A DNA stretch of 64,000 nt from Tropicimonas isoalkanivorans (GTDB lineage Bacteria; Pseudomonadota; Alphaproteobacteria; Rhodobacterales; Rhodobacteraceae): NCBI RefSeq assembly GCF_900112335.1, contig NZ_FOLG01000001.1, forward strand, positions 744,001 through 808,000, written 5' to 3'. The notes beneath the pieces are model-generated. The model had not been told where the DNA came from and did no database searches. It worked only from the letters and a program-made list of their open reading frames with translations. Below, piece after piece: positions 22,448 through 49,244 of this stretch (the first letter of the stretch is position 1; every line of letters starts with the position of its first letter). The translations under genes were made by a program, and so were the position numbers.

Positions 22448-22519
22448 CTCCCGCCCACCGCCGGCGTGCGCGTGCCGCGCACCTCGTCGGCAGTTGGGCC
22501 AAGCCCGCCTTCGGCGGGC
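22448..22519 (+). repeat. Structured intergenic repeat, copy A
   Basis: Order of parts: CTCCCGCCCAC, a 6-bp hairpin (GTGCGC/GCGCAC, 22466-22482), CGTCGGCAGTTGGGCC, then a 6-bp hairpin CCCGCC-TTC-GGCGGG (22504-22518). Copies B (22606-22669, opposite strand) and C (49171-49244) share the two fixed single-stranded blocks and the paired pattern while differing in stem sequence. Confidence 0.75.
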
Positions 22520-22605
22520 AGTCGAGCCGGAGCCGGAGAGCGGGGGAACGGCCGCGAGGGTCGCCCTGCTTCATAGTTCAAGGAGCCATCCAAGATCCCC
22601 GCCGA

Positions 22606-22669
22606 CGCGCCGAAGGCGCGCCCGGCCCAACGGGATGAGGCGCCGACAGGCGCCGAAGACGGGCGGGAG
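22606..22669 (-). repeat. Structured intergenic repeat, copy B
   Basis: Read on the minus strand it has CTCCCGCCCG, a hairpin GGCGCC-TGTC-GGCGCC, CATCCCGTTGGGCC, then the hairpin CGCGCC-TTC-GGCGCG. The last stem differs from copy A by a swapped C-G to G-C pair, which keeps the fold. It is inverted relative to copy A, 86 bp away, and ends 57 bp before the orphan gene at 22727. Confidence 0.72.
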
Positions 22670-22726
22670 CCCCCTTCCCGCTGAACCTGTGCTAGGGTGG
22701 CGGCACAGCGAACAGGAGGACCCGTC

Positions 22727-22972
22727 ATGATCTTGACCGTCGTGCACCAGGAAACGTTCGACTTCAGAAACCCCGGCAGGCACATCATCCTGGAGAGGGA
22801 AACCGATCACATCCCCTGCCCCGGAGATCTCATCAAGAACGGCGGCACCCTGGCGGGATACGACCTCTATCGAGTCGAACAGCGGATCTTCCGGTCGTCG
22901 CCCAAGCCCAACGGAGACAGCAAGGATTTCGATCAGGTGCTGCTGATCGTCTCCGACATGACGGAGGAGTGA
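22727..22972 (+). CDS. Orphan 81-aa hypothetical protein
   Basis: No family recognised. The ATG at 22727 has AGGAGG six bases upstream, good evidence that it is translated. The protein is soluble, without signal or membrane segment, with one Cys and a pattern of short beta-like stretches ([34 protein letters not shown]) that might form a small barrel. It is alone on its strand, downstream of the structured repeats and convergent with the SseB gene. Confidence 0.75.
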
Positions 22973-23021
22973 GAGGACGCGCCGAGCGGCCGGCCGCTCC
23001 GCCCCACGGCGGAGCACAAGT

Positions 23022-23816
23022 TCAGCGCAGGATCGGCGGAGCGTCCGGGTCCATGCCGGGCGGATCGATCTCTGTCACCTCGACCGCCTCCGGCTCCGGC
23101 AGGTCAAAGCGCAGCCCGACCTTCGCCAGCCGCGCCGACATGGGATCGCTGGCAGCGAGGAACGCCACGTCCATCTCGCCCGCCTCCAGCCCGGAAAAGG
23201 TCAGCGCCTCTCCAGCCGCCGTGGCCAGCGCGCCCTCCGCCCCCGGCACCGCATCCACGAAGGCCAGCAAATGCCCGCTGCGCCCGCTCTCGTAGACGAC
23301 GGTGGCAAGGAAAGCGATCTGCGCCAGGCCCCCGGCGGTGGCAAGCTTCACGTCGAGCCCGCGCAAGACCTGCTCGGGCACGGCGCCGGGCGCCGACACC
23401 TCCCGCGGGCGCTCCTCCGCCTGCTCCGGCCGGTGCTCCAGCGTGGCCGCAAGCCAGTCCACCGCCTCCGCGGGCAGAACCGTTTCGGAGTGCGGCACCC
23501 CGAGGTTGACCCCCAGGCCCATCCCCTTCCCGGCCAGCAGCTTCACCACCTGCCGCCCGGAGAGGCCGGCATAATACGCCGCCTCACCTACGAAATCGGC
23601 CAGCCGCACCTCGCGGTCAAACACCAGAACCACCGGCCCGTCGCCCAGCGGAAAGATCCGCGGCTCGATACTGTCGCCCTCCGCCTCCCGCTCCAGCAGC
23701 AGGAACAGCTCCGAATCCGCCAGCCGCTCGTAGAAGCGCATCTGCGCGGTGACATCCTCCGGCGCCTCGGCCACCGCCTGTTGCGCCAGGTCCAGCGCCG
23801 TCGTCTCATCGCTCAT
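23022..23816 (-). CDS. SseB family protein
   Basis: A 264-aa protein with an N-terminal SseB domain (MRFYERLADSELFLLLEREAEGD, then PVVLVFDREVRLADF), a family named after an enterobacterial enhancer of serine sensitivity and of unclear function. The C-terminal half carries a second, less conserved domain. It overlaps the glycosylase gene by 4 bp (ATGA). Confidence 0.82.
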   Translation of the reverse strand: MSDETTALDLAQQAVAEAPEDVTAQMRFYERLADSELFLLLEREAEGDSIEPRIFPLGDGPVVLVFDREVRLADFVGEAAYYAGLSGRQVVKLLAGKGMGLGVNLGVPHSETVLPAEAVDWLAATLEHRPEQAEERPREVSAPGAVPEQVLRGLDVKLATAGGLAQIAFLATVVYESGRSGHLLAFVDAVPGAEGALATAAGEALTFSGLEAGEMDVAFLAASDPMSARLAKVGLRFDLPEPEAVEVTEIDPPGMDPDAPPILR

Positions 23817-24400
23817 TTCAGGGCCTCCTGAACACGCTTTCGTAGCACCGGCAGCAACTCGGCCTCAAACCACGGGTTTCGCTTCAGCCACGCCGTATTG
23901 CGCCAGGACGGGTGGGGCAAGGGAAAGACGGCGGGCGCATGGTCGCGCCAGGCAGCGACGGTGCGGGTCACTCCCCCGGCCGCGGCCTTCCCAAGGTGGT
24001 ACTTCTGCGCATGCCCCCCGATCAGGACCGTCAGGTCGAACCGGCCAGCATAGGAGAGCGCCTCCGCCCGCCAGGCGCGCGCGCATTCCGGCGGAGGCGG
24101 CAGATCGGAGCCCTTTCGATAGCCCGGAAAACAAAACGCCATGGGAATGATCGCCACCCGGCCCCGGTCGTAAAAGGTCGCGCCGTCCATTCCGAGCCAC
24201 TCCCGGAGCCGCGTGCCCGATGCGTCATGAAAGGGAACTCCCGCGGCATGCGCCCGTGCCCCGGGAGCCTGGCTGGCAATCAAAATCCGAGCGCCGGAGC
24301 CGAACCAGACCACAGGCCGGGGCTCATGGGCGGTATCAGTCGCGGCGAAACGGTCGGCGCAGAGACGGCAGGCGGAAATGCGGTCGGGAAGACTGATCAT
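23813..24400 (-). CDS. Uracil-DNA glycosylase family protein
   Basis: A 195-aa protein of the UDG superfamily. Motif-like blocks are ILIASQAPGARAHAAGVPFHDASG (substrate pocket; GxPxxD-like) and a C-terminal PHPSWRNTAWLKRNPWFE, comparable with the HPSP block of these enzymes. Only CRLC is present at the N-terminus, so the four-cysteine FeS cluster of family 4 is probably missing. It may act in base-excision repair, but the exact family and substrate are uncertain. Confidence 0.82.
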   Translation of the reverse strand: MISLPDRISACRLCADRFAATDTAHEPRPVVWFGSGARILIASQAPGARAHAAGVPFHDASGTRLREWLGMDGATFYDRGRVAIIPMAFCFPGYRKGSDLPPPPECARAWRAEALSYAGRFDLTVLIGGHAQKYHLGKAAAGGVTRTVAAWRDHAPAVFPLPHPSWRNTAWLKRNPWFEAELLPVLRKRVQEALK

Positions 24401-24497
24401 GGACGCGACGTTCTAAACCCTTTCAATCGGCGCGCAAAGCAGACGTTTCCGCCCGCCGTACTGTCACACCGTCCGGCAGGCGCGCCTCGCCCCTGCG

Positions 24498-24521
24498 TCT
24501 TGTTGGACCAAATACCCAATT
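24498..24521. repeat. Half copy of the long inverted-repeat element
   Basis: TCTTGTTGGACCAAATACCC plus AATT corresponds to the right arm of the elements at 1742-1800 and 17029-17092, with GGACC in place of GGCGC. No left arm is visible within 100 bp. It sits between the divergent glycosylase and ArsR genes. Confidence 0.7.
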
Positions 24522-24588
24522 CCGCCATTTTCCACCGGCGCACGGCCGAACGAAAGCTATTCCGATTCCACCGCGACTCAATCATTGC

Positions 24589-24606
24589 CATATTTCTAGA
24601 AATGTG
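24589..24606. promoter_or_regulatory. Probable operator of the ArsR-type regulator
   Basis: An 18-bp near-perfect palindrome, CATATTTCTAGAAATGTG, with the perfect core ATTTCTAGAAAT, lies 13 bp before the ArsR start codon. AT-rich palindromes close to their own gene are usual targets of ArsR-family repressors. Confidence 0.6.
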
Positions 24607-24619
24607 AAAATGTCGCGCC

Positions 24620-24964
24620 ATGATGGCTCCGCTGCCTCCCCCGGTTCCGCTTGAAGCCGCCGCCGCGACCTTTGCCGCGCTCGGCTCTGAACAACGCCTC
24701 ATGGTGCTGCGAACATTGGTGCGGGCGGGTGAAGAGGGACTAAGTATCGGCGAACTTGGCACCCGTTCGGGCGTCAGTGGCTCCACGCTCACCCACCATG
24801 TCAAGACACTCGCGCAAGTGGGCCTCGTTCGGCAGACCCGCAAGGGCCGGAGCATCATCTGCGCCGCCGTCGCATTCGACGAGATCCGCGCGCTCACCGA
24901 CATCCTGCTGTCGGAGTGCTGTGCCGACTGCGCCCCCTCGATCCTGCCGGGTTCCGATGACTGA
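24620..24964 (+). CDS. ArsR-family metalloregulator
   Basis: A 114-aa winged-helix repressor. The recognition helix region reads VSGSTLTHHVKTLAQVGLVR. A vicinal cysteine pair in SECCADC near residue 100 is a plausible metal or metalloid sensor, though not the classical ELCVCDL position of ArsR. There is no clear ribosome site, and two ATG codons in a row make the start uncertain by one residue. It overlaps the permease gene by 8 bp and very likely controls it. Confidence 0.87.
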   Translation: MMAPLPPPVPLEAAAATFAALGSEQRLMVLRTLVRAGEEGLSIGELGTRSGVSGSTLTHHVKTLAQVGLVRQTRKGRSIICAAVAFDEIRALTDILLSECCADCAPSILPGSDD

Positions 24965-26009
24965 CACGACGCATAGCTCCCCCACCCGCCCCGCTCTCTG
25001 GCGCAAGGCCGACAAGGTCTGGCTGCTGATCGCGTTTCTGCCGTTTGCCGTGGGCGTGATCGATCCGCCGAAGGCAGTCCCCACAGTCACCTTCGCGCTC
25101 GGCCCGCTGGCCCATACCGCACCTTTCATCGTCTTTGCGGTGCTCGCGGTGGCCTGGCTGAAAGCGACCGGCGCGGAGACGTTGCTGGCGCGCGCCTTCG
25201 AGGGGCGCGAGGTCCGCATGATCCTGTTGGCCGCGCTCGCCGGGGGGCTGTCGCCCTTCTGCTCCTGCGAAGTCATCCCCTTCATCGCCGCCATGCTCGC
25301 CATCGGCGCGCCGCTGTCGGCGGTCATGGCCTTCTGGCTCGCCTCGCCGCTGATGGACCCGGCGATGTTCCTCATCACTTCCGGCACGCTCGGGTGGCAA
25401 TTCGCGACCGCCAAGATGGTCGCGGCGGTGGCTATCGGCCTGTTCGGCGGCTTCGGGGTGAAGGTTTTCGCTGACTCCCCGGTTTTTGCCGACCCCCTGC
25501 GCGCATCGCCTGTCGCCCGCGGCAAGAGCAGGTGCGGCTGCGGGTCGTGCACCCCCGACCCGCTGTCCGGCAAACCGGTCTGGCGGTTTTGGAGCGAACC
25601 GGAGCGCCGCCGGGAGTTCGGGGCGACGGCACGGGACAACGCTCTTTTCCTGCTCAAGTGGCTGCTTCTGGCCTACATGATTGAAGCCCTGATGCTGACC
25701 TACATTCCGCCGGAAGCGGTCGCGGGCGTGCTCGGCGGCACCGGACTGATGCCCATTCTGCTCGGCGCGGTCGTGGGGGCGCCCGCCTATCTGAACGGCT
25801 ACGCGGCCGTGCCGCTGATCGACGCGCTGCTGCAGCAGGGGATGTCCAACGGCGCAGCGATGTCCTTCGCCATTGCTGGCGGGGTGAGTTGCATTCCGGC
25901 AGCGGTCGCGGTCTGGGCACTGGTCAAACCGCGTGTCTTTGCCGGCTACATCGGCTTCGCGACGTTCGGCGCGGTGCTGGCCGGAATCGCGTGGTCCATG
26001 ATCGCCTGA
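24957..26009 (+). CDS. Permease of the ArsP_1 (YraQ/DUF318) family
   Basis: A 350-aa inner-membrane protein with about eight hydrophobic segments in two repeats. The family signature GGLSPFCSCEVIPFIAAML is in the first half and GAPAYLNGYAAVPLIDALL in the second. A cytoplasmic loop near residue 185 has a cysteine cluster CGCGSC that could bind a metal. Relatives include the organoarsenical exporter ArsP, but many members have no known substrate. Coupling with an ArsR-type sensor favours metal(loid) export. Confidence 0.87.
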   Translation: MTDTTHSSPTRPALWRKADKVWLLIAFLPFAVGVIDPPKAVPTVTFALGPLAHTAPFIVFAVLAVAWLKATGAETLLARAFEGREVRMILLAALAGGLSPFCSCEVIPFIAAMLAIGAPLSAVMAFWLASPLMDPAMFLITSGTLGWQFATAKMVAAVAIGLFGGFGVKVFADSPVFADPLRASPVARGKSRCGCGSCTPDPLSGKPVWRFWSEPERRREFGATARDNALFLLKWLLLAYMIEALMLTYIPPEAVAGVLGGTGLMPILLGAVVGAPAYLNGYAAVPLIDALLQQGMSNGAAMSFAIAGGVSCIPAAVAVWALVKPRVFAGYIGFATFGAVLAGIAWSMIA

Positions 26010-26220
26010 GGGCCGGGCGCGCCCGAGCGCGCCGCGCGGGATTTCGCCCCGCGCTCTCCCCCGCCTCCGCGGCGGTCGGCAAGCCGATTTCGGACGGATA
26101 CCCTCGCGGAAACTTGCCGAAAACCGCGCGCCATCCCTTTGCGGAGATACGCAGTCTTACCTAGTGTGGCGCACGAGGCCGGCGCCTGGTTCCGCCGAGC
26201 CACCACCGGAAAGGCAGTCC

Positions 26221-27108
26221 ATGGGCCGTTTTCTCACCATTCTCGTCATCGTGGCCGTCCTGCTCGGCGCCGGCGGCCTGTGGCTGACGCGTCCGAAGCC
26301 ATTGCCGGAGTCGGCGGTCGCGGGGCTGGAGGGCGACCCCGCGGCCGGGCGGCAGGTATTCCTCGCCGCCGGTTGCGCCGCCTGCCATGCCAAGGCGGGC
26401 GCGGAAGGACAGGAGGCGCCGGAAATGAGCGGCGGCCGACGGCTGGCGACCGCGTACGGTACCTTTGTCGCCCCCAACATTTCGCCCGACGCGGAGGCCG
26501 GTATCGGCGCCTACACGCTCGCGGGGCTCGCCAGCGTTCTCAAACGAGGGGTCACACCGGAAGGCAAACACCTTTACCCGGTCATGCCCTACGCAACTTA
26601 TGCGCGCATGCGTGTGCAGGACATCGCCGATCTGAAGGCCTATCTCGACACGCTGCCCGCCGTTGAGACGCCGGCGGCGGCGAGCGAAGTTGCCTTCCCA
26701 TACTCGCTCCGCAGCCTGGTCGGCTTCTGGAAGTGGCGCTATCTGGACACCGCTTTCGTCGGCGCAGCGCCGAGCCCGCAGATGGAACGCGGACGCTACC
26801 TGGTGGAGGCGCTCGGGCATTGCGCCGAATGCCACACGCCGCGCGACCGTTTCGGCGGACTGGATCGCAGCCGATGGATGGCCGGTGCGCCCAACCCTGT
26901 CGGCACCGGGGAGGTGCCGAACATCACGCCCGCCGCCATCGACTGGTCGCGGAGCGAGATGGTCTGGTACCTGCAGAGCGGCTTCACCCCCAGCCACGAA
27001 GAGGTCGCCGGGGAGATGGAGCCTATCATCGCGGGGCTCGGCCAATTGCCCGAAGAGGACCGGGAGGCGATTGCTGTCTATCTCGCTGGGCTCGCACCGG
27101 TGGAATGA
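26221..27108 (+). CDS. Di-haem cytochrome c
   Basis: A 295-aa protein with an N-terminal membrane anchor (FLTILVIVAVLLGAGGLWL) and two cytochrome c domains. Haem sites CAACH (near residue 57) and CAECH (near 203) are each followed by a NISPD or NITP block and later methionines that may be axial ligands. It resembles the cytochrome subunits of membrane-bound dehydrogenases, but no dehydrogenase gene is adjacent. AAGGC precedes the ATG at 26221. Confidence 0.9.
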   Translation: MGRFLTILVIVAVLLGAGGLWLTRPKPLPESAVAGLEGDPAAGRQVFLAAGCAACHAKAGAEGQEAPEMSGGRRLATAYGTFVAPNISPDAEAGIGAYTLAGLASVLKRGVTPEGKHLYPVMPYATYARMRVQDIADLKAYLDTLPAVETPAAASEVAFPYSLRSLVGFWKWRYLDTAFVGAAPSPQMERGRYLVEALGHCAECHTPRDRFGGLDRSRWMAGAPNPVGTGEVPNITPAAIDWSRSEMVWYLQSGFTPSHEEVAGEMEPIIAGLGQLPEEDREAIAVYLAGLAPVE

Positions 27109-27178
27109 CGGGCATGGCTATTTTGGTCGGCGGTGACGCACGTGCTATGATGCGCCCGCGCAACCACAGGACCGAGCC

Positions 27179-28135
27179 ATGCCGCATCCCGATGGAATGC
27201 CCCCGCAGCAGCCAGGAAAGCTCTGGCTGACCGAAGGCGGGATCGAAACCGAGATCATGTACAAGTGGGGACACGAGCTGCCGCAGTTCGCCATGTTCCC
27301 GCTACTCGACAATCCCGCGGCGCTGCAGGCGATGCAGGACATGTGGCGGCGGTCGCTGGATGTCGCGGCGCAGCACGGCTTCTCCATGGTTATGAACGGG
27401 CTGGATTATCGCGCCAGCCCGGATTGGGCTGCGCTGCTGGGGTATTCGCTGGAAGGGCTGGCCGAGATGCAGCACCGCTCCATCGACTTCCTGCGCGAAC
27501 TGCGGGACGAGTACACGGGCCAGATCCCGGACATGGTTGTCTGCGGCACCGTCGGTCCGCGCGGCGACGCCTACGGGTTGAACCGGGACATAACGGCGGA
27601 CTCGGCGGAGGAGTATCACGCCGTTCAGCTTACCACCCTGCGCGAGGCCGGCGCCGAGATGGCATGGACGATGACGTTCAACAACATCCCCGAGGCCGTG
27701 GGCGCGATTCGTGCGGCCCGTGCCATCGGGTTGCCGATCGTGATGGGCCTGACGCTCGACAGCAACGCGCGCCTCAAGTCGGGGCCGAGCCTTGGAGAGG
27801 CTATCGAAAGGATCGACGCGGAGGCCGGTGGCGGCCCGGAGTTCTACCTGCTGAACTGTTCGCACCCGGTGGAATTCGAACCCGCGCTGGATGGCGGCGA
27901 TTGGGAGCGCCGGATCCGGGCGCTGCGGCCAAACGCGTCCAAGATGGAGAAGATCGCTTTGTGCCAACTCGGTCACCTCGAGGAAGGCAACCCGGTGGAA
28001 CTAGGCCAATTGATGGGCGATCTGGCGCGCCGGCAGCCCCAGATCGACATCTGGGGCGGATGCTGCGGCACCTGCGAGGTGCACCTGGAGGAGATCGCTC
28101 GGAACGTGAAGGCCGCGCGGATGGAAATGGCGTGA
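27179..28135 (+). CDS. Homocysteine S-methyltransferase family protein
   Basis: A 318-aa TIM-barrel protein of the cobalamin-independent, zinc-dependent family. The N-terminal LTEGGIETEI matches the DGG/MGTEL block, and zinc ligands appear as the Cys in LLNCSHP near residue 223 and the double Cys in GGCCGTC near 298. These enzymes methylate homocysteine or related thiols using S-methylmethionine or betaine-like donors; which applies here is unknown. AGGA lies upstream of the ATG. Confidence 0.87.
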   Translation: MPHPDGMPPQQPGKLWLTEGGIETEIMYKWGHELPQFAMFPLLDNPAALQAMQDMWRRSLDVAAQHGFSMVMNGLDYRASPDWAALLGYSLEGLAEMQHRSIDFLRELRDEYTGQIPDMVVCGTVGPRGDAYGLNRDITADSAEEYHAVQLTTLREAGAEMAWTMTFNNIPEAVGAIRAARAIGLPIVMGLTLDSNARLKSGPSLGEAIERIDAEAGGGPEFYLLNCSHPVEFEPALDGGDWERRIRALRPNASKMEKIALCQLGHLEEGNPVELGQLMGDLARRQPQIDIWGGCCGTCEVHLEEIARNVKAARMEMA

Positions 28136-28170
28136 TGTCCTGAACGCATTGACACACGGACGGCGCCGGA

Positions 28171-29112
28171 TCAATCGCCTTCGTCGAACGCGATGGGGGT
28201 CTGCCGCGCACGGTTCACCCTTAGCGTGAACACATCCGGCCGTGCGTAGTGGCCGCTCACGTCGAACTTGCGCCGGGAGGCGCGCGCCGCGTCAACGTCG
28301 ATCTCTGCAAACAGAAGCCCCTGTTCGCGCGACATGGGCCCCGCCTCCCGCCCGCCGAAGGGGCGAAAGACGACTGCATCGCCGGGATTCACCCATTCTT
28401 CCGGATCGGGGAAAAGCTCCTCCCGATAGGGCACCAACGCCGGCACGTCCGACGCCTTCAGCGCCGTCGCGCAACCCACCACCCAGCAACCGCCCTCGCG
28501 CGCGATGTGCTGCATGGTGGCGAGCCAGGTCGCGCCGCTGTCCCAGGTCGGAGCGGCGTAGATATCTATGCTCTGCGCGTAGAGAGCGAACCGCGCGAGC
28601 GGCATGTAGTTTTCCCAGCACAGCAGCGCGCCCACCCGGCCCACGGCTGTGTCGACCACGTTCAGCGTCGAGCCGTCACCGAAGCCCCAGATCATGCGCT
28701 CGGGGTTCGTAGGCATCAGCTTGCGGTGATTGTTCAGCAGCCGCCCGTCCGCGTCGATGATCGCCACGCTGTTATAGAGCGTGCTGCCGCTCACCGCGCC
28801 GTCGAGTTCCTGGTGGCCCATGACGACGACCATGGAATGCTCCTTCGCGGCCGCCTTTACCGGGGCGAGATCGTCCCGGCTCAGATCGATGGAATTGGCC
28901 TGGGCGCGGGCGAACAACTCATCCGTTTTGCCCATCCCTGCGCCGGGGGCCAGACGCCAGACGAACGTCGGGTAGCCGGGTAGCCACGCCTCGGGGAACA
29001 CGATCATCTCGCAGCCTTCCGCTCCGGCCTCCGCAACAAGGTCCACCGCGCGTTCCAGCGAACGTTCCTTGTCCAGGTAGACCGGCGGATACTGCACCAC
29101 GGCAAGTCTCAT
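28171..29112 (-). CDS. Nitrilase family hydrolase
   Basis: A 313-aa carbon-nitrogen hydrolase of the nitrilase branch. The Glu-Lys-Cys triad is visible as FPEAWLPGYP (Glu), NNHRKLMPTNPE (Lys) and GALLCWENYMPL (Cys). The arrangement CWEN is characteristic of true nitrilases that convert nitriles to acids and ammonia. GGAGG lies seven bases before the ATG at 29112. It is next to lipA on the same strand, without obvious functional connection. Confidence 0.92.
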   Translation of the reverse strand: MRLAVVQYPPVYLDKERSLERAVDLVAEAGAEGCEMIVFPEAWLPGYPTFVWRLAPGAGMGKTDELFARAQANSIDLSRDDLAPVKAAAKEHSMVVVMGHQELDGAVSGSTLYNSVAIIDADGRLLNNHRKLMPTNPERMIWGFGDGSTLNVVDTAVGRVGALLCWENYMPLARFALYAQSIDIYAAPTWDSGATWLATMQHIAREGGCWVVGCATALKASDVPALVPYREELFPDPEEWVNPGDAVVFRPFGGREAGPMSREQGLLFAEIDVDAARASRRKFDVSGHYARPDVFTLRVNRARQTPIAFDEGD

Positions 29113-29191
29113 GACAGCCCCTCCAAGCGGATCGGAGGAGCGTAGTCGGTTCCGCAACGTAAATCAAAGAGTGGCCGGCAGCGCCGGTCTG

Positions 29192-30142
29192 TCAGGCCCG
29201 CCCGAGCTTCGCCAGCCGCGCCGCCCGCAAACGGTCGAAATCGTCGCCCGCGTGGTAGGAGGAGCGCGTGAGCGGCGTTGCCGAGACCATCAGGAAGCCC
29301 TTGCCGTATGCCGCCTTTTCGTAGGACTTGAATTCGTCCGGCGTCACGAACCGCTCCACGGCGTGGTGCTTGGGCGTCGGTTGCAGGTATTGGCCAATGG
29401 TCAGGAAATCGACGTCCGCCGATCGCATGTCGTCCATCACCTGCAGCACACCTTGCCGGTCCTCACCCAGTCCGACCATGATGCCCGACTTCGTGAACAT
29501 CGTGGGGTCCAGCTCCTTCACCCGCTGAAGCAGGCGGAGGGAGTGGAAATAGCGCGCACCGGGCCGGACCGAGGGATAGAGGCCAGGGACCGTCTCAAGG
29601 TTGTGGTTGAATACGTCGGGTTTCGCCTCGACCACGGTTTCCAGAACCGAAGGCGCGCATTTCAGGAAGTCCGGCGTGAGGATCTCGATTGTGGAATCCG
29701 GCGCTCGGTGACGGATGGCGCGGATGGTCTGCGCGAAATGCTCCGCCCCGCCGTCCTCCAGATCGTCACGGTCGACGGAGGTGATGACCACGTGGCGCAG
29801 GCCAAGCTTCTCCACCGCGTGCGCCACGCGGCCCGGCTCGAACACGTCGAGATCCGACGGCTTGCCGGTGGCCACGTTGCAGAAGGTGCAGCCACGGGTG
29901 CAGATCTCGCCCATGATCATCATGGTGGCGTGGCCTTGGGTCCAGCACTCGCCCACGTTCGGGCAGCCGGCCTCCTCGCAGACGGTGGAGAGCCCCAGGT
30001 CGCGCATCAGCTTGTGCGTGTCGTTGAACCCCTGCCCGCCGGGCGCCCTCACGCGAATCCAGTCCGGCTTCTTCGGCTGGGCGTTGTCCGGGCGGTGCGC
30101 CTTTTCCGGGTGGCGTTGGTCGGGGATCTTCAGGTCGCGCAT
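29192..30142 (-). CDS. lipA: Lipoyl synthase
   Basis: Radical SAM enzyme inserting sulfur into octanoyl groups to make lipoate, 316 aa. Both clusters are present: [12 protein letters not shown] for the auxiliary 4Fe-4S centre and CTRGCTFC for the radical SAM centre; the final [10 protein letters not shown] block is also conserved. The ATG at 30142 is preferred over a GTG four codons upstream because GAGG is six bases before it. Confidence 0.97.
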
Positions 30143-30341
30143 GTCACACCTCACGAGTTCTCTCCCTCATATATGGTGCAGGCCCCGAAACCAATTGCCC
30201 TTTTCGGAGCGCAAAGCCGGCTTGCGGCGCGAGGGAACCGCCTGAAATAAGGCGCCCCACGAAATCGTGCGACACGATCTTGCAAAATATCTTTGGCTTT
30301 CGACTGATCCTGTCCAATATTCGCCGCTGGGAGGACGCCCT

Positions 30342-31343: not shown

Positions 31344-31450
31344 GACACATGGCCGCTCCCGACGTATGCGCCGGGGGTCACAGGGCCAGTACCTCCTCCT
31401 AGTCTCCTCCCATTCCGGGCCATGACCCGGTCCGTCTGGGAGGACACCAA

Positions 31451-32974: not shown

Positions 32975-32986
32975 ACCCAACGAAAA

Positions 32987-33507: not shown

Positions 33508-33581
33508 CAGCCCCTGGAATGCCGTCGTCTGCTGGCCCGGGTACCAACTGATTTTCGTGGTGTGGAACAGGGAGAGCCGAC

Positions 33582-35659: not shown

Positions 35660-35685
35660 ACACCTGAAGTCTCCGGAAACCATGG

Positions 35686-39466: not shown

Positions 39467-39729
39467 GCGGCCTGCGTGAGCTCTAGGGCCACGGGCGTTT
39501 CCGCGGTAGAGAGTTGAGTGGCAGGTCGGTTCTGCCGCGTCAATCGACGCCCCCACTCAAGAAACCTTAACTTTACAACCGGTTGTGCGGCGTTTGTTAA
39601 GTCGCACACGAACCCGTGTGCACTCACCCACAAACGCGATCCGGTTCATTGCGACACGCCCCTCCCTTGCATCCTCGCCCGTTTCAGGACAGGTCGTGGG
39701 CAAGGCTCGTACCTTGAAGGCTCCTGCGA

Positions 39730-40612: not shown

Positions 40613-40789
40613 TACACATTTGAATCTTCGCGTATCCCGTGTGCAGAAGCGCTGTAGCTTCCCAAAGTGGGAGGGTAGAACCGCCGTAGGGGAAAGCTCG
40701 AATTTGAGGCCCCAGCAACCATACACCAAACGTATCACCCCCGCGCACCGTCCGGCGTGCGGCCAACCGAGAGCCAAGGGACAGGAACG

Positions 40790-41965: not shown

Positions 41966-41973
41966 TCCGTCTT

Positions 41974-42003
41974 GCCCGGGGCCTGACACATCGGGACCCG
42001 GGC
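41974..42003. terminator. Possible bidirectional hairpin
   Basis: GCCCGGG (41974-41980) pairs with CCCGGGC (41997-42003) across a 16-nt loop, in the 48-bp gap between the convergent FadL and RTX-esterase genes. No T run on either side. Confidence 0.35.
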
Positions 42004-42013
42004 GGAGAGCACC

Positions 42014-43462
42014 TCAGAAGAGGAAATCATCTTCGGTCAGCGTCAAGTCCGCACCCCCGACCAGGACGACGGTCAGGTCCATTCCGCCTGCGTCGATGTG
42101 AATTCGAAGGTTGGAACGGCCCGCGTCGAACTCCAGATCGCCGAAGTCGACGTTCCTGTCTTGGAATACCAGAAGGTCGTCGCCCTGCTCGAACCCGATC
42201 ACGCGGTCCGTCCCGGACTCGTTGGGGCGCCAGATAATCCGATCCTCGCCGCCCCCCGGGCGCAATTCATCGTTGCCTGCACCACCAACCAGCTTGTCCC
42301 GCCCGGCACCGCCGACAAGTTTGTCCCGGCCAGCGTCGCCGAACAGCCGATCCGCGCCGCCGTTCCCGCGCAGCACATCCCGGCCATTCTCGCCGTGGAT
42401 GATATCCCGGCCCCCCCGTCCGGAGGCGACATCGTCTCCGGCGCCGAGGTCGATCACATCCCTGCCTCGCCCCCATCCGATGACCTTGTCCGCCCCGCCG
42501 GACGCGTCGACGGTGTGCATCTGCCGGCCCAGCACGAAGACATCGGCATAGCTCGTCCCCTTGGCCGCCTCCACGCTCACCATGGAGACCGTCAACTCGG
42601 TCGCGTTGCCCCTTTCGTGGGCCACCGCCATCTCGCCGAGGTAGTTCTTGACCCACACGCCGTGTCTCAGGTTCGAGAAATCCGCCGTGTCGTACTGGGT
42701 GAAACCGAGCATCTGCTGCACCGGCGCCCTGGCAGACACCTTGAACCAGTCGTTGCCTTGCGTGCCGACCTGAATGTCCGCGTCGCCAGACACCGACAAC
42801 GTGCTCGCCAGCTCCTGCCCAAGCAGGGCAGCGAAATCGGGTTCGTAATGGATCCGGTCGTCCTGGAACATGTCCTCGACCGTGAAGCCCTGGCCGGCGG
42901 CCACGGTGTCGGGGTCCACGGAGAGGACGGAAGCGTCCTTCGCGGCCACGGCCATTTGCGCCTGACGCACGGTCGCCCAGCCGTTTTCCTGTTCGGCGCT
43001 GTCCTGCCACAGCCCTTCCCGACGTTCCGCCGACACGTCTTCAGAGAGGAGCGAAACGACCATGTCGTGAGCGCCATAGCGTGCGGTCACGTCGGCGTGC
43101 AGCAGCTTCAGGTTCGCCTTGTAGTCCGCGGCCGTTTCGCTCAGGCCCGCGTCGGCCTCCCCCTGCACCCAGATCATTCCGGCGACATGGGCCCCCTCGA
43201 TATGGCCAGGCTTGCCCGGGTCAACGATGCTGTCCACCCGCGCATAGAGATCGTCCAGCAGTTCGCCGGCTCCCGGCTCGCCGGACGGGTCCCAGTCGTC
43301 ATTGTCCTGATAATACCGATGCGCCGACAAGGCGCTGCCCGACACCGCATAGTGGACGACGATGGCGCCCATCTCGGCGAGTTGTTGTGACACTGCGATC
43401 GGCAGGGGCGGCATCGTCGCATTCGACTGCCCCGCCACGATAACGATTGGTTGCTTACCCAT
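42014..43462 (-). CDS. Secreted esterase-like protein with RTX calcium-binding repeats
   Basis: A 482-aa two-part protein without an N-terminal signal. Residues 1-225 resemble the sialate O-acetylesterase (SASA) SGNH hydrolases: IVIVAGQSNAT with the nucleophile Ser, MIWVQGEADAG, and DDRIHYEPDF with the Asp-His pair. Residues about 315-410 hold roughly eight hemolysin-type nonapeptides (GGADRLFGD, GGAGNDELR). A C-terminal segment ending DDFLF suggests type I secretion. A secreted carbohydrate esterase is inferred; no transporter genes are adjacent. Confidence 0.87.
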   Translation of the reverse strand: MGKQPIVIVAGQSNATMPPLPIAVSQQLAEMGAIVVHYAVSGSALSAHRYYQDNDDWDPSGEPGAGELLDDLYARVDSIVDPGKPGHIEGAHVAGMIWVQGEADAGLSETAADYKANLKLLHADVTARYGAHDMVVSLLSEDVSAERREGLWQDSAEQENGWATVRQAQMAVAAKDASVLSVDPDTVAAGQGFTVEDMFQDDRIHYEPDFAALLGQELASTLSVSGDADIQVGTQGNDWFKVSARAPVQQMLGFTQYDTADFSNLRHGVWVKNYLGEMAVAHERGNATELTVSMVSVEAAKGTSYADVFVLGRQMHTVDASGGADKVIGWGRGRDVIDLGAGDDVASGRGGRDIIHGENGRDVLRGNGGADRLFGDAGRDKLVGGAGRDKLVGGAGNDELRPGGGEDRIIWRPNESGTDRVIGFEQGDDLLVFQDRNVDFGDLEFDAGRSNLRIHIDAGGMDLTVVLVGGADLTLTEDDFLF

Positions 43463-43761
43463 ACAAATACACCCGTCAATTCCTTAAGACCGCGGCACGG
43501 GCGCCCTTTTGGGGCGGTTTGTTCGGCTGCGGCACGCTATGCGCCGAACCTAGTTGGCGGGCGCACTGTGTCCATGTTGATTTTCCATACCGGCACGATC
43601 CGGCCGAAATCCCGCCCCTTCGTCGGTCAGGCCGACCGAATATCCGGCACAGCCAGCGCAAGGGTGCGCCGAATTTCCGCAGGTATAATCCCGGCACGTC
43701 ACCGGCCTACACCGACGAATCGCTCTGGATCAATGGCGGTCCGCCCGCTACCAATCGGCGC

Positions 43762-44637
43762 ATGAGCTTCCCGCGCCTCCTCTATCCCGACGCCGCCGCC
43801 TGGTTCGCCACCCCCAAGAAACGCTTGGGTCTGTTTGGCATGTCAGGCTTGGGCAAGACGCATGTCTCGAACCAGCTCCGAGCACATGGCGACTGGTTCC
43901 ACTACTCCGTCGATTACCGCATCGGGACGCGGTACATGGGCGAGTTGATCTCCGACGAGTTCAAACGCCAGGCGATGCAGGTGCCGCACCTGCGGGAATT
44001 GCTGATGTCGGATTCCATCCGTATCGAGTCCAACATCACCTTCAACAACCTCGCGCCGCTCTCCCAATACCTCGGCAAACCCGGCGATCCGGACCGCGGC
44101 GGTTTGCCGATGGAAGAATATCGCAAGCGCCAGGCCCAGCACGACGCGGCTGAACGTGCCGCGATGCTCGACGTGCCGCGTTTCGTCGACAGGGCGGAAG
44201 AGATCTATGGCTACCCCCATTTCGTCTGCGATTTCAGCGGCTCCTTCTGTGAAGTTGTCGATCCCGACGACCCGCAGGACGAAATCCTGACCACGCTGGC
44301 AAAGACGATGCTTCTTGTCTGGATCGAAGGCTCGGAGGCGCATGCGGAGGAGTTGGTGCGGCGTTTCAACCGGGCGCCGAAACCCATGTGCTACCGGCCC
44401 GCCTTCACCGAGAGCTGCTGGCAGGACTTCCTTTGCGACCACAAGGCGACAGCCGGCGAGGTTGACCCGGACGCATTCGTCCGCTTCGCCTACCGCCGTG
44501 CCATGGCCGCGCGGCAACCGGCCTATGCCGCCATCGCCGACAACTGGGGCGTCAAGGTCACGGCGGAGGAAGTCGCCGCCGCCGACAGCCCGGAAGCGTT
44601 CGAGGCGCTCATTGGCCGCGCCCTTGAGCGCGGCTGA
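43762..44637 (+). CDS. P-loop ATPase/kinase-like protein of unknown role
   Basis: A 291-aa soluble protein. A P-loop [11 protein letters not shown] is at about residues 32-42, followed by [20 protein letters not shown] and, later, [16 protein letters not shown], which could hold a Walker B aspartate. The layout suggests a small-molecule or nucleotide kinase fold rather than an AAA+ machine, but no family is certain. The preceding 299 bp (43463-43761) contain no gene that I can support. It ends 41 bp before metA. Confidence 0.72.
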
Positions 44638-44678
44638 CGCAAGGTCTATCTGAGGCGTTCCAACCCGCGAGACATGTC

Positions 44679-45605
44679 ATGCCGATCAAACTGCCCGAAA
44701 CCCTGCCCGCCTATGACATCCTTCAGAACGAGGGCGTCATGGTCATGGGCGAGGATCGCGCGGCGCGGCAGGACATTCGCCCCCTGCGCATCGGGCTGCT
44801 CAACCTGATGCCCAAAAAGATCCAGACCGAGACGCAATTCGCCCGGCTTATCGGAGCGACGCCGTTGCAGATCGACCTTCACCTGATCCGCATCTCCTCC
44901 CACGAGACGCGGAACACCGCCGCCGAGCATATGGAGGCGTTTTACAATCCCTGGACCGAGGTCACGGACGAGAAGTTCGACGGGCTCATTATCACCGGCG
45001 CCCCGATCGAGCATTTGCCGTTCGAGGAGGTGACCTATTGGGACGAGCTCACCCAGATCTTCGAGTGGACCCAGACCAACGTGCATTCCACCCTCGGCGT
45101 CTGCTGGGGCGGGATGGCGATGATCAACTATTTTCATGACGTCCCCAAACACATGCTGGATCACAAGGCCTTCGGGTGCTTCCGGCATCGGAACCTCGCG
45201 CCCGCGTCGCCCTATTTGCGGGGCTTCTCGGACGATCTGTTGATGCCGGTGAGCCGCTGGACCGAGATGCGGCAGGACGAGATCGAGGCCGTACCCGCAT
45301 TGATCCCGCTGATCTCCTCCGACGACACCGGCCCCGCGCTGGTGGAGGACCCCGACCACAGGGCGCTCTACGTGTTCAACCACTTCGAATACGACAGCGG
45401 CACACTGAAGGAGGAATACGACCGGGACGTGGATGCCGGCCAGCCGATCAACGTGCCGGTCAATTACTATCCTGACGACGATCCGGAGAACATGCCGACC
45501 AATCGCTGGCGCAGCCATGCGCACCTGTTTTACGGCAACTGGATCAACGAGATTTACCAAACCACCCCGTTCGACCTTCATGCCATCGGGACTGATCCCC
45601 GGTAG
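44679..45605 (+). CDS. metA: Homoserine O-acyltransferase MetA
   Basis: First committed enzyme of methionine synthesis, acylating homoserine, 308 aa. The Cys nucleophile lies in [11 protein letters not shown] (around residue 142), with His-Glu in YVFNHFEYD. MetA enzymes may use succinyl- or acetyl-CoA depending on one active-site residue, so the acyl donor is left open. The 41 bp upstream show no SAM riboswitch. The hydrolase gene overlaps its 3' end. Confidence 0.95.
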
Positions 45606-46482
45606 CGCCCGCCGGGCGGCGCGCGCCTTTCCACCCGTCGGCCGGCTTTTGCAGGTGGACGGACGGCAGGTGCACGCGTTTGTGGAGGGAGACGGGCCAG
45701 ATGTCGTCTTGCTGCACGGCGCGTCGGGCAGCCTGCGGGATTTCACCTTCGAGTTCGCCGGCCGGCTGGCACGGCACTTCCGCGTCACCGCCTTCGACCG
45801 GCCGGGACTGGGCCATTCGGAGCGCCTGCACCGCGGGGGCGAGAGTCCGTCCGAGCAAGCCGCCATGCTGGACGCGGCGGCCGCGCAACTCGGCATCCGC
45901 CGCGCCGTGATCGTCGGCCATTCCTATGGCGGCGCGGTCGCGATGGCCTGGGCGCTGGACCGGCCGGAGCGGGTGGCCGCGGTGGTCTCGCTCGCGGGGG
46001 CCACGATGCCATGGCCGGGTGAGCTCGGCCTTTGGTACCGTGTCGGAGCCACGCCCGTCGGCGGCTGGCTCGCCGTTCGCCTCGCCACCCGCCTGACACC
46101 GCGTTCGGTGGCCGATCGTGCCATTGCCGCCATTTTCGCCCCGCAGCCCGTGCCGGACGGCTACGTAGAGCACATGGGCGTTCCCCTCACTCTGCGCCGG
46201 CCGAAGGTGCTGGGGGCGAATGTCCGGCAGGTGGGCGGGCTGAAACCCCATCTCGCCGCGATGTCACGTCGCTATCCGACCCTCCGCATGCCGGTCGAGA
46301 TCGTCCATGGCACGTCCGACAGTGTGGTCTATTTCAACGTGCACGCCTGCCCCACGGCCAACCTGCTTCCGGATGCCAAGCTGACCGAATTGCCGGGCGT
46401 CGGTCACATGCCACACCACGCGAACCCGGAGGCAAGCGCGGAAGCCGTGATCCGGGCCGCATCCCGGGGCGGATTGAACTAG
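45580..46482 (+). CDS. Alpha/beta hydrolase
   Basis: A 300-aa hydrolase: oxyanion region [14 protein letters not shown], nucleophile elbow GHSYGGAVA, and the catalytic His in [13 protein letters not shown]. The start at 45580 gives a 26-bp overlap with metA; a start further in is possible because the first 20 residues look unstructured. Substrate unknown. Confidence 0.85.
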
Positions 46483-46524
46483 GGTACGTCCGTCTGCATA
46501 GTGAACAAAACACGGGAAAAGCTT

Positions 46525-47397
46525 ATGTCAAACCTGCCCTTCGACGGCGCCATCAGTGAGTTCTACAAGAAAAAAGCCCCCGATCCCGTCCGCGAGGCGA
46601 TCAAGGATGCCGATGGCAAGCCGATCCTCCAGGGGAGCTATCCCTATGAAGACCGCATGGACAAGGACGAGTACGAGGAGACGCTCCACAAGCTCCAGAT
46701 CGAACTGGTCAAATTGCAGGCCTGGGCGGCAAATTCGAAGGAGCGGATCGCGATCGTCTTCGAGGGCCGGGACACGGCCGGAAAAGGCGGCGCCATCAAG
46801 CGGTTCATGGAATATATGAACCCCCGTTCGGCCCGCGTGGTGGCGCTCAGCGCGCCCACCAGCCGCGAGGTCAACCAGTGGTACTTCCAGCGCTACGTGG
46901 AACAGATGCCCGCGGGCGGCGAGATCTGCCTGTTCGACCGGTCCTGGTACAACCGCGGCGTGGTCGAGCACGTCTTCGGATTTTGCACCAAGGCCGAACG
47001 GCAGGCGTTCTTTCGGCAGCTTCCCGACTTCGAGAAACTGCTGGTGGAGGACGGTATCAAGCTCTTCAAGATCTGGCTGAACATCAGTCAGGCGGAACAG
47101 CTCAACCGGATGCTGTCGCGCGAGCACGATCCGCTGAAGCAGTGGAAACTGTCGAAGATCGACGTGGACGGGCTGAACTTCTGGGACGAATACTCCGAAG
47201 CAATCTCGGAGACGTTGCACCTGACGCACGAGATCTACGCCCCGTGGACCGTCATCCGCGCCGACGACAAGCGCCGCGCCCGGATCGCCGCAATCCGCCT
47301 CGTGCTGAGCCAGATCGAGTACGAGGGCAAGAAACCGAAGGTGGTGGGCGAGGTCGACGCAGCGATCTGCGGTGGCCCTGCCCTGATACATGCCTAA
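46525..47397 (+). CDS. ppk2: Polyphosphate kinase 2, PPK2 family
   Basis: A 290-aa kinase transferring phosphate between polyphosphate and nucleotides. Walker A EGRDTAGKGGAIKRF, the lid SREVNQWYFQRYV and Walker B LFDRSWYNRGVVE are intact. One-domain architecture with this spacing fits class I PPK2 (nucleoside diphosphate phosphorylation), but class assignment needs an alignment. The ATG at 46525 is preferred to a GTG eight codons upstream. The stop overlaps the TetR gene by 8 bp. Confidence 0.94.
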   Translation: MSNLPFDGAISEFYKKKAPDPVREAIKDADGKPILQGSYPYEDRMDKDEYEETLHKLQIELVKLQAWAANSKERIAIVFEGRDTAGKGGAIKRFMEYMNPRSARVVALSAPTSREVNQWYFQRYVEQMPAGGEICLFDRSWYNRGVVEHVFGFCTKAERQAFFRQLPDFEKLLVEDGIKLFKIWLNISQAEQLNRMLSREHDPLKQWKLSKIDVDGLNFWDEYSEAISETLHLTHEIYAPWTVIRADDKRRARIAAIRLVLSQIEYEGKKPKVVGEVDAAICGGPALIHA

Positions 47398-48010
47398 GAA
47401 ACGCGGCTACCACCACGGGAACCTTCGTCAGGCCCTGATCGACGCCGCGCTCGGCCTGATCGAGGCGAAGGGGCCGCAGGGCTTTACCCTGTCGGAGGCG
47501 GCGAAGGCCGCGGGGGTGACGCCGGCGGCCGTCTATCGCCACTTCCAGGGCCGAGAGGATCTGCTCTATGCGATTGCGAAAGAAGGCTTCGAGATCTTTG
47601 CCGACTTGATGGAATATGCCTTCGAGAAGGGCCAGCCGTCGCCGCTTGCAAGTTTCGAGTCCACCGGCCGCGCCTATCTCGCCTTCGCAAGAAAAAACCC
47701 GGGCCATTACCAGGCCATGTTCGAGGCAGGCCTGTCGCTCCGCTCGGATCCGGAACTCGCAAACGCGGCGGATCGTGCGGCGGGGGTGCTGGAGCGCGCC
47801 GCCGAAGGGCTTATGGAGCAGCTTCCACCCGACCGGCGCCCGCCTCCACAGATGGTCTCGGCCCATATCTGGGCGATGAGCCACGGGGTCGTCGAACTCT
47901 ACGCCCGTGGCGCGCCGGGAAGCCGGGCGCCTTTCCCGCCCGAGGACCTGCTGGAAACCGGGATCGGAATCTATCTCCGTGGTCTCGGATTGCTGCCGCC
48001 AGACGTCTGA
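47390..48010 (+). CDS. TetR family regulator
   Basis: A 206-aa repressor. The N-terminal helix-turn-helix is GFTLSEAAKAAGVTPAAVYRHFQGREDLLYAI at residues about 31-62. The C-terminal domain has WHG-type features (AHIWAMSHGVVELYARG). Translational overlap with ppk2 suggests it regulates its own operon or a polyphosphate-linked target. Confidence 0.92.
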   Translation: MPKKRGYHHGNLRQALIDAALGLIEAKGPQGFTLSEAAKAAGVTPAAVYRHFQGREDLLYAIAKEGFEIFADLMEYAFEKGQPSPLASFESTGRAYLAFARKNPGHYQAMFEAGLSLRSDPELANAADRAAGVLERAAEGLMEQLPPDRRPPPQMVSAHIWAMSHGVVELYARGAPGSRAPFPPEDLLETGIGIYLRGLGLLPPDV

Positions 48011-48106
48011 CGCTGGAAGGCGGACGAATCGGCGCTGAGATGATTCGCCGCAACCGGTCGACATGCCGACGCAAGATTATTGCGCGGCGGATCGCCACCG
48101 GGTCGA

Positions 48107-48124
48107 GAATTCTGCTCGGAATTC
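48107..48124. promoter_or_regulatory. GAATTC-N6-GAATTC repeat, possible operator
   Basis: Two perfect GAATTC palindromes 12 bp apart lie in the 216-bp region between the TetR gene and the small gene at 48227. The spacing of about one helical turn is operator-like. No further support. Confidence 0.3.
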
Positions 48125-48226
48125 AGCCGACAAGCCCAAAATGCCGTTCCCCCATAATTAAACCATTTCGTTGCAGCCCAGCACTTCGCGTAACGTGGTC
48201 GCAATAGAAACGAGGGGAGGACGGTG

Positions 48227-48460
48227 ATGACGTGGTGCGAATTTCTGCAGGAATGGCACGGGCAACTTCACCGGTTGCAGACCCTTTTCCCCTATGCTGA
48301 TGCCACCGCGCTGGCGAGATTTCGTGGCAACAAGCACCTTCTCACCGAATATATCGCGAACACGCATGACCTGACTCTGTCCGAAGGGCTGGAGGCACTC
48401 GAACTGCGCCTGCTTCCCGGAGCTCAGGCCAAAACGACTTTCGCTTACGCGGCGGAGTGA
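48227..48460 (+). CDS. Small hypothetical protein, 77 aa
   Basis: Soluble, helical, no signal or membrane segment. The N-terminal WCEFLQEWHGQLHRLQTLFP and DATALARFRGNKHLLTEYIA are the most structured stretches. A GGGGAGG site lies six bases before the ATG at 48227; a GTG directly before it would add one residue. I do not recognise a family. It converges on the XRE-cupin gene. Confidence 0.72.
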   Translation: MTWCEFLQEWHGQLHRLQTLFPYADATALARFRGNKHLLTEYIANTHDLTLSEGLEALELRLLPGAQAKTTFAYAAE

Positions 48461-48475
48461 GACGAGCCACGCGGG

Positions 48476-49111
48476 TCAGTTGAGTGATGTAACCCAGAGG
48501 ATCGTCGCGTCCTCCTGACTGACGGAAACGACGTTGTGGCCCATGGTGGCGTCGTAATAGGCGCTGTCACCGCGCCGCAGGTCTACGGGAGCGTAGAACT
48601 CGGTGTAGAGGCGGATCACGCCGGTCAGGACCAACAGAAACTCTTCGCCCTCGTGGCGGACCCAGCCATCGAATTCCTCCATGGACCGGGCTCGGATGCG
48701 CGCGCGATAGGGCAGCATTTTCTTTGTGGTGAGTCCGTCCGCGAGCAACTCGTGCTCGTAGGTCGCGGTCGCGTGGGCGGCACCGTCGCCGGCCATGTTC
48801 ACGACCATGCGGCCGTTTGCCTCCACCTGAGGCGGCGGTGTGAAAAGTTGGGGAACGCTGATCTTCAGCCCGCCGGCGAGCTTCTTGAGCGCATCGTAAG
48901 TCGGCGACATTTGACCGTTCTCGATCTTGGAGAGCGTGGAGCGCGCCAGCCCGGCTTGCCCGGCCGCCTGCTCCAGCGTCCATCCCTTCGCCTTGCGGAG
49001 CTCGCGAACACGCTCGCCCAGATCGAGCGGCTCCCCCCGCTCGTTCCGGCCGGATTCGCGGGCGATGCGAATGAGGGACCTTGGGTCCGAAGGGGCGCCG
49101 TCCTGAGACAT
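48476..49111 (-). CDS. XRE-family regulator with cupin domain
   Basis: A 211-aa regulator: helix-turn-helix at about residues 32-87 (GWTLEQAAGQAGLARSTLSKIENGQ), then a C-terminal cupin barrel (GWVRHEGEEFLLVLTGVIRLY). Relatives such as PuuR respond to small metabolites. The ATG at 49111 begins MSQDGAPSD; an in-frame ATG 12 codons upstream is less likely. The target is not evident from neighbours. Confidence 0.9.
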   Translation of the reverse strand: MSQDGAPSDPRSLIRIARESGRNERGEPLDLGERVRELRKAKGWTLEQAAGQAGLARSTLSKIENGQMSPTYDALKKLAGGLKISVPQLFTPPPQVEANGRMVVNMAGDGAAHATATYEHELLADGLTTKKMLPYRARIRARSMEEFDGWVRHEGEEFLLVLTGVIRLYTEFYAPVDLRRGDSAYYDATMGHNVVSVSQEDATILWVTSLN

Positions 49112-49170
49112 GCCGGCCCTTCTACGCTCGCGCCGTGCCGAGTTCAACGGGTGTGCAGAGGTCAGGGGGG

Positions 49171-49244
49171 CTCCCGCCCACTGCCTTCCCGCGCCCGGCG
49201 GGCGCGGTTCGTCAGCGGTTGGGCCGCGCCCGCCTTCGGCGGGT
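49171..49244 (+). repeat. Structured intergenic repeat, copy C
   Basis: CTCCCGCCCAC, an 8-bp hairpin CCGCGCCC-GGC-GGGCGCGG (49189-49207), CGTCAGCGGTTGGGCC, then the hairpin CCCGCC-TTC-GGCGGG (49229-49243). Same architecture as copies A and B 27 kb away. It lies between the XRE regulator start and the end of the sucrose-phosphate synthase gene. Confidence 0.75.

What the first reader, a model, noticed from the sequence alone, without database searches (positions are those of the whole stretch)
22448..49244. Three-copy family of structured intergenic repeats with covarying stems
Copies at 22448-22519 (plus), 22606-22669 (minus) and 49171-49244 (plus) share two fixed blocks, CTCCCGCCC and a GTTGGGCC-containing linker, each followed or preceded by a hairpin. 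The first hairpin differs completely in sequence between copies but is always paired (6, 6 and 8 bp). The last hairpin keeps a TTC triloop while one base pair switches from C-G to G-C. Changed sequence with kept pairing suggests selection for an RNA fold rather than a DNA site. I do not recognise it as a described RNA family.
Basis: seen in the sequence. Interest (0 to 1): 0.7.

Follow-up and report, generated by a model that had tools for sequence, protein, structure and literature searches.

The report
REP-like structured repeats after bacterial genes
The three look-alike sequences belong to a family of short folding repeats that mostly sit behind genes, dozens per genome in some marine bacteria of one family; their letters change freely but their fold is largely kept, and what they do is not yet known.

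Summary
The window's three copies belong to a family with about 43 copies in this Tropicimonas genome (35 by pattern; 8 more by model). By an exact two-block pattern, 19 of 199 sampled genomes of the same family hold 5 to 129 copies; the reversed control never exceeds 2. Each copy is CTCCCGCCC, an outer stem, hairpin 1, GTTGGGC(N)3GC and hairpin 2. Stems differ in sequence but stay mostly paired, with strong covariation. Copies are intergenic, about half of them within 30 nt after the stop codon of a same-strand gene, often facing each other between convergent genes. No Rfam match, no link to a Y1 transposase, mostly no T-tract. TC/TC positions, most loops and folding energies favour a fold of the complementary strand, so whether RNA or single-stranded DNA folds is open; a C-over-G bias explains part of the mismatch asymmetry. 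Best reading: a REP-like transcript-end repeat, a new variant of a known kind, not found in the papers searched.

The parts
22448..22519 (+). copy 1: CTCCCGCCC (22448-22456), outer stem and hairpin 1 (stem-loop 22466-22482, loop TGC), GTTGGGC (22493-22499), hairpin 2 (22503-22519, GCCCGCC-TTC-GGCGGGC)
   Evidence: G002 (T. marinistellae) carries a near-identical copy (L119) with a T-A to C-G change in hairpin 1, beside a relative of the gene at 23022-23816
22606..22669 (-). copy 2, facing copy 1: CTCCCGCCC (22669-22661), GTCTTC/TCATCCC outer stem, hairpin 1 GGCGCC-TGTC-GGCGCC, GTTGGGC (22631-22625), hairpin 2 (22620-22606)
   Evidence: counterpart in G005 (T. sediminicola, L167) between relatives of the genes at 19840-21615 and 23022-23816
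49171..49244 (+). copy 3: CTCCCGCCC (49171-49179), outer stem CTG/CAG, hairpin 1 CCGCGCCC-GGC-GGGCGCGG, GTTGGGC (49218-49224), hairpin 2 (49229-49243)
   Evidence: the gene at 48476-49111 has an 88% identical relative on G005 locus L159, which also carries a copy with a long hairpin 1

Best explanation
These are copies of a REP-like dispersed element (about 75 bp, two hairpins) of Rhodobacteraceae that marks the 3' ends of genes. Shown: many copies, covarying stems, intergenic place, frequent placement shortly after a stop codon in the sense direction, old copies shared by species beside the same genes, one lineage with a burst of near-identical copies, and no Y1 transposase tied to them. Inferred: copies spread in the past through an unidentified enzyme acting in trans and were then kept because the folded nucleic acid acts as a transcript boundary (helping RNA 3'-end formation or stopping polymerase), as E. 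coli REPs are reported to act on RNA. The preserved fold is probably that of the strand complementary to the gene's message, which would fit stopping antisense or convergent transcription, or a single-stranded DNA step; which of these is unresolved.
For: Copy number and control. Covariation. Position: of 124 copies in three Tropicimonas genomes 59 convergent, 37 tandem-sense, 17 tandem-antisense, 11 divergent; 65 of 124 within 30 nt after a sense stop; facing pairs 13 against 1. Independent genus G212: 27 of 30 copies read (of 73) follow a sense gene, 0 divergent. Public annotation agrees in Leisingera NJS201, where the match starts 8 bases after the rfbA stop. At metK six Tropicimonas genomes have the element where G004 and several other genera show a hairpin plus T-run by eye. 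Burst in G013, 15 of 23 copies read. REP effects near stop codons and on mRNA stability: PMC12306157 (passages).
Against: No expression, termination or stability data. The T-tract of an intrinsic terminator is mostly missing (TTTT within 14 nt of hairpin 2 in 7 of 117). The strand that folds best is not the sense mRNA strand. Copy number is patchy (0, 2 and 3 pattern hits in three genomes of the same genus), so it is dispensable; at metK G003 and G008 show neither the element nor, by eye, a terminator in its place. The window's own three copies were called in the less usual contexts (divergent, divergent, antisense-tandem), although copy 2's counterpart in G005 is sense-tandem. Of 81 ortholog changes touching a Watson-Crick pair only 16 kept it, under a simple pairing scheme that runs into the loop. 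No enzyme that could have moved the copies was found.
Confidence: 0.45

Rival explanations
1. A single-stranded DNA element: the strand opposite the message folds when exposed and is recognised by a single-strand-specific enzyme, as REPs by RAYT transposases or attC sites by integron integrase. Its job is its own spread.
For: Complementary strand folds better in 179 against 20 (DNA parameters) and 171 against 30 (RNA parameters) of 204 copies, in both transcribed and untranscribed contexts; exact dinucleotide shuffles give 175 against 186. Hairpin 2 triloops are GNA on that strand in 71 against 4, and hairpin 1 tetraloops GNNA in 54 against 2, loops I recall as very stable in DNA. Burst of near-identical copies in G013.
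Against: No Y1 transposase match in G000, G002 or G005, which have many copies; none of 7 Y1 loci searched carries a copy. No replication-strand bias in G212: 34 against 39 (positions, skew). Hairpin 1 triloops are GNA on the other strand in 43 against 11. Orientation follows the upstream gene, which a selfish element need not do.
Confidence: 0.22
2. An RNA roadblock read on the antisense strand: transcripts arriving from downstream fold the element and stop before they enter the gene in antisense. Facing pairs give each of two convergent genes its own guard.
For: Orientation tied to the adjacent gene, many convergent sites and facing pairs; TC facing TC, read as 5'-GA/GA on the antisense strand, alternates with Watson-Crick pairs (69 and 39 of 139), and the next pair shows all four Watson-Crick types in 86 of 88 counted copies.
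Against: No T-run was noticed on that strand after the fold; 37 of 124 copies are sense-tandem with no antisense gene behind them. Part of the mismatch asymmetry is a general C-over-G bias: CC 19 against GG 2 beside AC 66 against GT 24.
Confidence: 0.15
3. An ordinary 3'-UTR hairpin or terminator of the sense mRNA, alike between genes by convergence.
For: Position after stop codons; stands where other genomes have a T-run terminator at metK.
Against: Two fixed sequence blocks that an intrinsic terminator does not need; T-tract mostly missing; hairpin 1 folds less well on the sense strand.
Confidence: 0.1
4. A double-stranded DNA protein site (for example gyrase or a nucleoid protein, as for BIMEs).
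For: Convergent 3' ends are where supercoils meet (established knowledge).
Against: Stem sequences change while pairing is kept; a duplex site would keep letters, not pairing.
Confidence: 0.06

Closest known systems
REP/BIME repeats (GTAG and CGTC superfamilies; PMC3733652, abstract and passages read)
   Same: short palindromic intergenic repeats, many per genome, downstream of genes, often in facing pairs, patchy between species; CGTC REPs also lack a dedicated transposase
   Different: two hairpins joined by a fixed linker instead of one hairpin; no single 8-9 bp stem with AT at its first positions; outer stem with TC/TC mismatches; the words Rhodobacter and Roseobacter have 0 occurrences in that paper's main text
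E. coli REPs within 15 nt of stop codons (PMC12306157, passages read)
   Same: placement just after stop codons; reported to stabilise mRNA or stall ribosomes
   Different: no sequence relation tested; function untested here
Integron attC sites (recalled)
   Same: 3' of a gene in the sense direction, complementary-strand fold, variable terminal hairpin, core GTTRRRY present
   Different: no matching RYYYAAC partner, scattered not arrayed, no integron integrase over the cut-off in 30 genomes
Intrinsic terminators
   Same: GC-rich hairpin after the stop codon
   Different: T-tract mostly missing; fixed blocks present

Membership tests
REP elements (GTAG/CGTC) | high-copy short palindromes, intergenic, mostly 3' of genes | tested here: met
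REP elements (GTAG/CGTC) | unpaired GTAG or CGTC-type tag at one end of a single stem | tested here: not met
   The ends are CTCCCGCCC and GTTGGGC..GC with two hairpins; CGTC occurs only inside one subclass, where its G is in a covarying pair
REP elements (GTAG) | associated RAYT (Y1) transposase | tested here: not met
   PF01797 has no match in G000, G002, G005; no copy on the 7 Y1 loci searched, of 10 returned
Integron attC | paired RYYYAAC / GTTRRRY core sites | tested here: not met
   Only GCCC/GGGC can pair; the AAC side has no partner
Integron attC | integron integrase in the genome, cassette arrays | tested here: not met
   0 of 30 genomes over the TIGR02249 cut-off, though all 30 have weaker matches; copies are scattered
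Intrinsic terminator | hairpin followed by a T-tract | tested here: not met
   TTTT within 14 nt in 7 of 117 copies with hairpin 2; background 2.4%
Described RNA family (Rfam 15) | score over the curated threshold | tested here: not met
   whole window, copies 1-2 down to E 1, nine loci
Structured RNA | transcribed and folded as RNA in the cell | not testable with these tools
   no RNA-seq at hand

The most novel reading that the evidence does not exclude
A new class of genome-wide 3'-boundary element in which evolution preserves the fold of the strand opposite the message: the antisense strand, as RNA from incoming transcripts or as single-stranded DNA, folds through tandem G.A motifs and a bulge next to a conserved GCCCAAC and is read by a dedicated, still unknown factor.
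Probability: 0.2. Interest if true: 0.75.

Novelty: new variant of a known kind. Interest (0 to 1): 0.5.

Why it matters
An abundant structured repeat in a group of mostly marine bacteria was found neither in Rfam nor in the open-access papers searched. It sits where transcription ends. It changes its letters at the same gene in different species while largely keeping its fold, so selection on the fold can be measured and tested directly. If the antisense strand is the one that counts, it would point to a way of guarding gene ends, or a mobile DNA enzyme, not yet described in this group.

Tried and rejected
Rejected: integron attC (GTTGGGC fits GTTRRRY, but no paired partner, no arrays, no integrase over the cut-off). 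RAYT-moved REP. Viral origin (0 hits with one pattern). tRNA in 13 loci or Rfam element in 9 loci, among them the loci with divergent copies (none). Intrinsic terminator. Replication-strand bias in G212: none (34 against 39, counted by hand positions with the roughly two-armed skew). A k-turn was considered in thought only: a Watson-Crick pair stands between the bulge and the tandem G.A, so it does not fit the k-turn I recall. Functional theme of genes beside copies: none seen in 20 proteins (NusB, MetK, PurD, glutamate dehydrogenase, transporters and others; one without a family).

Results against my reading: the A.C over G.T asymmetry is 28 to 3 for isolated hairpin-1 mismatches and 22 to 2 between orthologs, but only 66 to 24 and 40 to 18 on the alignments, where CC against GG is 19 to 2 and 31 to 9; a C-over-G bias explains part of it, and non-orthologous pairs show 216 to 64. 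Hairpin 2 shows no wobble bias (5 to 8). Only 16 of 81 ortholog changes at Watson-Crick pairs kept the pair. The purD site lacks the element in most of the 20 genomes read there.

Rows dropped: L034, L040, L052 and L062 as chance-like before the counts; L061 left out of A2 as a near duplicate of L038. The 139 sequences leave out identical repeats and three chance-like hits, whose list was itself capped. One search used 33 typed ortholog pairs chosen by eye (31 of equal length); one search repeats it by script on all 52 pairs (37 of equal length) and replaces it. The light shuffle (67 to 53) is replaced by the exact one. A3 comes from loci found with a GTC...TCCC pattern, so its TC/TC share is raised by construction, and its alignment was fitted to the model. 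Its one hit cut at a contig end (L183) was left out of the list.
Full report
WHAT IS THERE. The three copies are at the stated places. The pattern CTCCCGCCCN{25,55}GTTGGGC gives 36 hits in the window's genome and none when read backwards; one hit (L034) lies inside a called gene and was dropped. A covariance model from 59 copies finds 42 copies at E up to 0.1: 34 of the 35 pattern copies and 8 new ones, the weakest new one at E 0.04; five of the 8 were read. Window copy 3 falls below that line. That makes about 43.

ANATOMY, in the CTCCCGCCC to GTTGGGC sense: CGGRGSG (weakly conserved), CTCCCGCCC, outer stem, hairpin 1, one base (mostly C), GTTGGGC, three bases, GC (100% and 98% over 239 copies), hairpin 2. 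GCCC of the first block can pair with GGGC of the second; those pairs never vary in A2, because the blocks were searched for, and so prove nothing. Outer stem: counted from the two blocks without any alignment (139 distinct copies), position 1 is G-C in 107 and C-G in 23; position 4 is G-C 73, T-A 23, C-G 16, A-T 6 (85% Watson-Crick against 38% expected). Positions 2-3 are TC facing TC in 69 (expected 41) and fully Watson-Crick in 39 (expected 4.8). Hairpin 2 starts 3 or 4 bases after GTTGGGC in 50 of the 66 entries tallied (that tally counts three facing pairs twice), with best stems of 4-11 bp of changing sequence.

COVARIATION. On A2 the score is 0.296 against 0.101 for shuffles and at most 0.092 when the partner is slid. 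On 89 copies from loci of other genomes it is 0.372 against 0.106 and at most 0.084; there the pair at position 4 is G-C 63, A-U 10, U-A 8, C-G 5 with 2 others, while the two pairs before it are non-standard in 84 and 85 of 89 (fitted alignment, loci chosen by a GTC..TCCC pattern). Copies beside the same gene in different species show it directly. Behind the NusB gene the outer stem reads CTGTTC/GAAGTCAG, CTGTGCC/GGCAACAG and CTGCCCC/GGGAACAG in G000, G002 and G005. Counted by script over 52 ortholog pairs (36 sharing both flanking genes), 37 of equal length: 16 pairs changed on both sides and stayed Watson-Crick, 53 changed on one side and lost it, 12 changed on both sides and lost it; 33 further changes were between non-standard pairs (the scheme pairs inward from the ends up to the loop, so it includes mismatch positions). 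Window copy 1 and its G002 counterpart differ by a T-A to C-G change in hairpin 1.

WHERE COPIES SIT. Gene calls came from a codon-usage caller of my own. Of 124 copies in G000 (38), G002 (43) and G005 (43), 59 lie between convergent genes, 37 between genes in the copy's own direction, 17 in the reverse direction, 11 between divergent genes, none inside a called gene (L034 had been dropped). 65 of 124 start within 30 nt after the stop of a same-strand gene. Neighbouring copies within 500 nt face each other in 13 cases and turn away in 1. In G212, another genus, 27 of 30 copies read (of 73) follow a same-strand gene and none is divergent. Public annotation agrees in two plasmids: the match starts 8 bases after the rfbA stop in Leisingera NJS201, and lies between a YqgE/AlgH gene and an aspartate carbamoyltransferase gene, all in one direction, in Ruegeria TM1040. 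The genes beside copies share no theme in 20 proteins. Behind metK six Tropicimonas genomes have the element 2 to 132 nt after the stop; G004 and genomes such as G014, G016, G017 and G020 show a hairpin with a T-run in that place, read by eye; G003, G008 and others show neither.

DISTRIBUTION. 14 of 60 genomes (own included) have pattern hits, none of them among the 24 genomes of other families. In 199 genomes of the family 40 have a hit and 19 have five or more, up to 129; the reversed control is at most 2 per genome. No hits of that pattern in viral contigs. Within the genus the pattern counts run from 0 (G004) to 63 (G005); G003 and G008 hold some variant copies with changed blocks.

WHICH STRAND. 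Read on the complementary strand, TC/TC is 5'-GA facing 5'-GA, which I recall as a stable tandem sheared pair; on the given strand it is two pyrimidine mismatches. With RNA parameters the complementary strand folds better in 171 and worse in 30 of 204 copies; with DNA parameters 179 and 20. For 122 Tropicimonas cores the figures are 100 and 20, against 175 and 186 for exact dinucleotide shuffles. The preference is the same whether the flanking gene transcribes that strand (60 to 13) or not (40 to 7), and recurs in G212 (24 to 5). Hairpin 2 also scores better on that strand in 106 against 3 of 110, by 0.8 kcal/mol on average. Loops: hairpin 2 triloops GNA on the complementary strand 71, on the given strand 4, other 53; hairpin 1 tetraloops GNNA 54 against 2, other 34, but triloops GNA 11 against 43, other 44. 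Wobble: 28 A.C against 3 G.T in isolated hairpin-1 mismatches, 5 against 8 in hairpin 2; 22 against 2 between orthologs; but 66 against 24 and 40 against 18 over the alignments, with CC 19 against GG 2 and 31 against 9, so a C-over-G bias accounts for part of it. I take the complementary-strand fold as likely (about 0.7), not proven.

MECHANISM. Shown: kept fold, place at gene ends mostly in the sense direction, shared sites, a burst of near-identical copies in G013 (15 of 23 read), no Y1 transposase tied to copies, mostly no T-tract, no replication-strand bias in G212. Inferred: REP-like spread in the past, then retention as a transcript boundary. REPs near stop codons are reported to stall ribosomes, and REPs in 3' regions to stabilise mRNA (PMC12306157, passages). 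PMC3733652 (abstract and passages) describes GTAG and CGTC REPs; this family fails the tag test and is therefore not filed as one of them. PMC2864571 (passages) describes the SAM/SAH riboswitch, a Rhodobacterales motif upstream of metK, not behind it; PMC4809877 was seen as an abstract and outline only. Searches that found no description of this family: in open-access papers only.

Noticed in passing
L394-L412 (G013), 40-110 nt after GTTGGGC; L022, L025, L088, L101 (G000): A second repeat-like 3'-end sequence follows many copies: CTTTCATCTCTT..CAAATACTCCGGGGGTGAGG in G013 and CCTCCGGCGGGGATATTTTC.GACACAAGAAG or close variants in Tropicimonas.
   Followed up: no
L216, L235, L257, L196, L215 (other Rhodobacteraceae): GTTGGGC and hairpin 2 merge into one long hairpin ending GCCCAAGGCCGCCAAG or similar; in L244 and L256 two facing copies share a single central hairpin.
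   Followed up: partly
L310-L330 (G003, G008 and one in G006): Variant copies with changed blocks: GTTGGGGGTGGC, or CTCCCTCCC with GTCGGGC.
   Followed up: partly
L395 (G013): A run of more than 30 C just after hairpin 2 of one copy.
   Followed up: no
window 19786-19815 (-): A terminator-like hairpin (12-pair stem, then TTTTT) lies just after the gene at 19840-21615, which I recall as aspartyl-tRNA synthetase, so T-run terminators coexist with the element.
   Followed up: no
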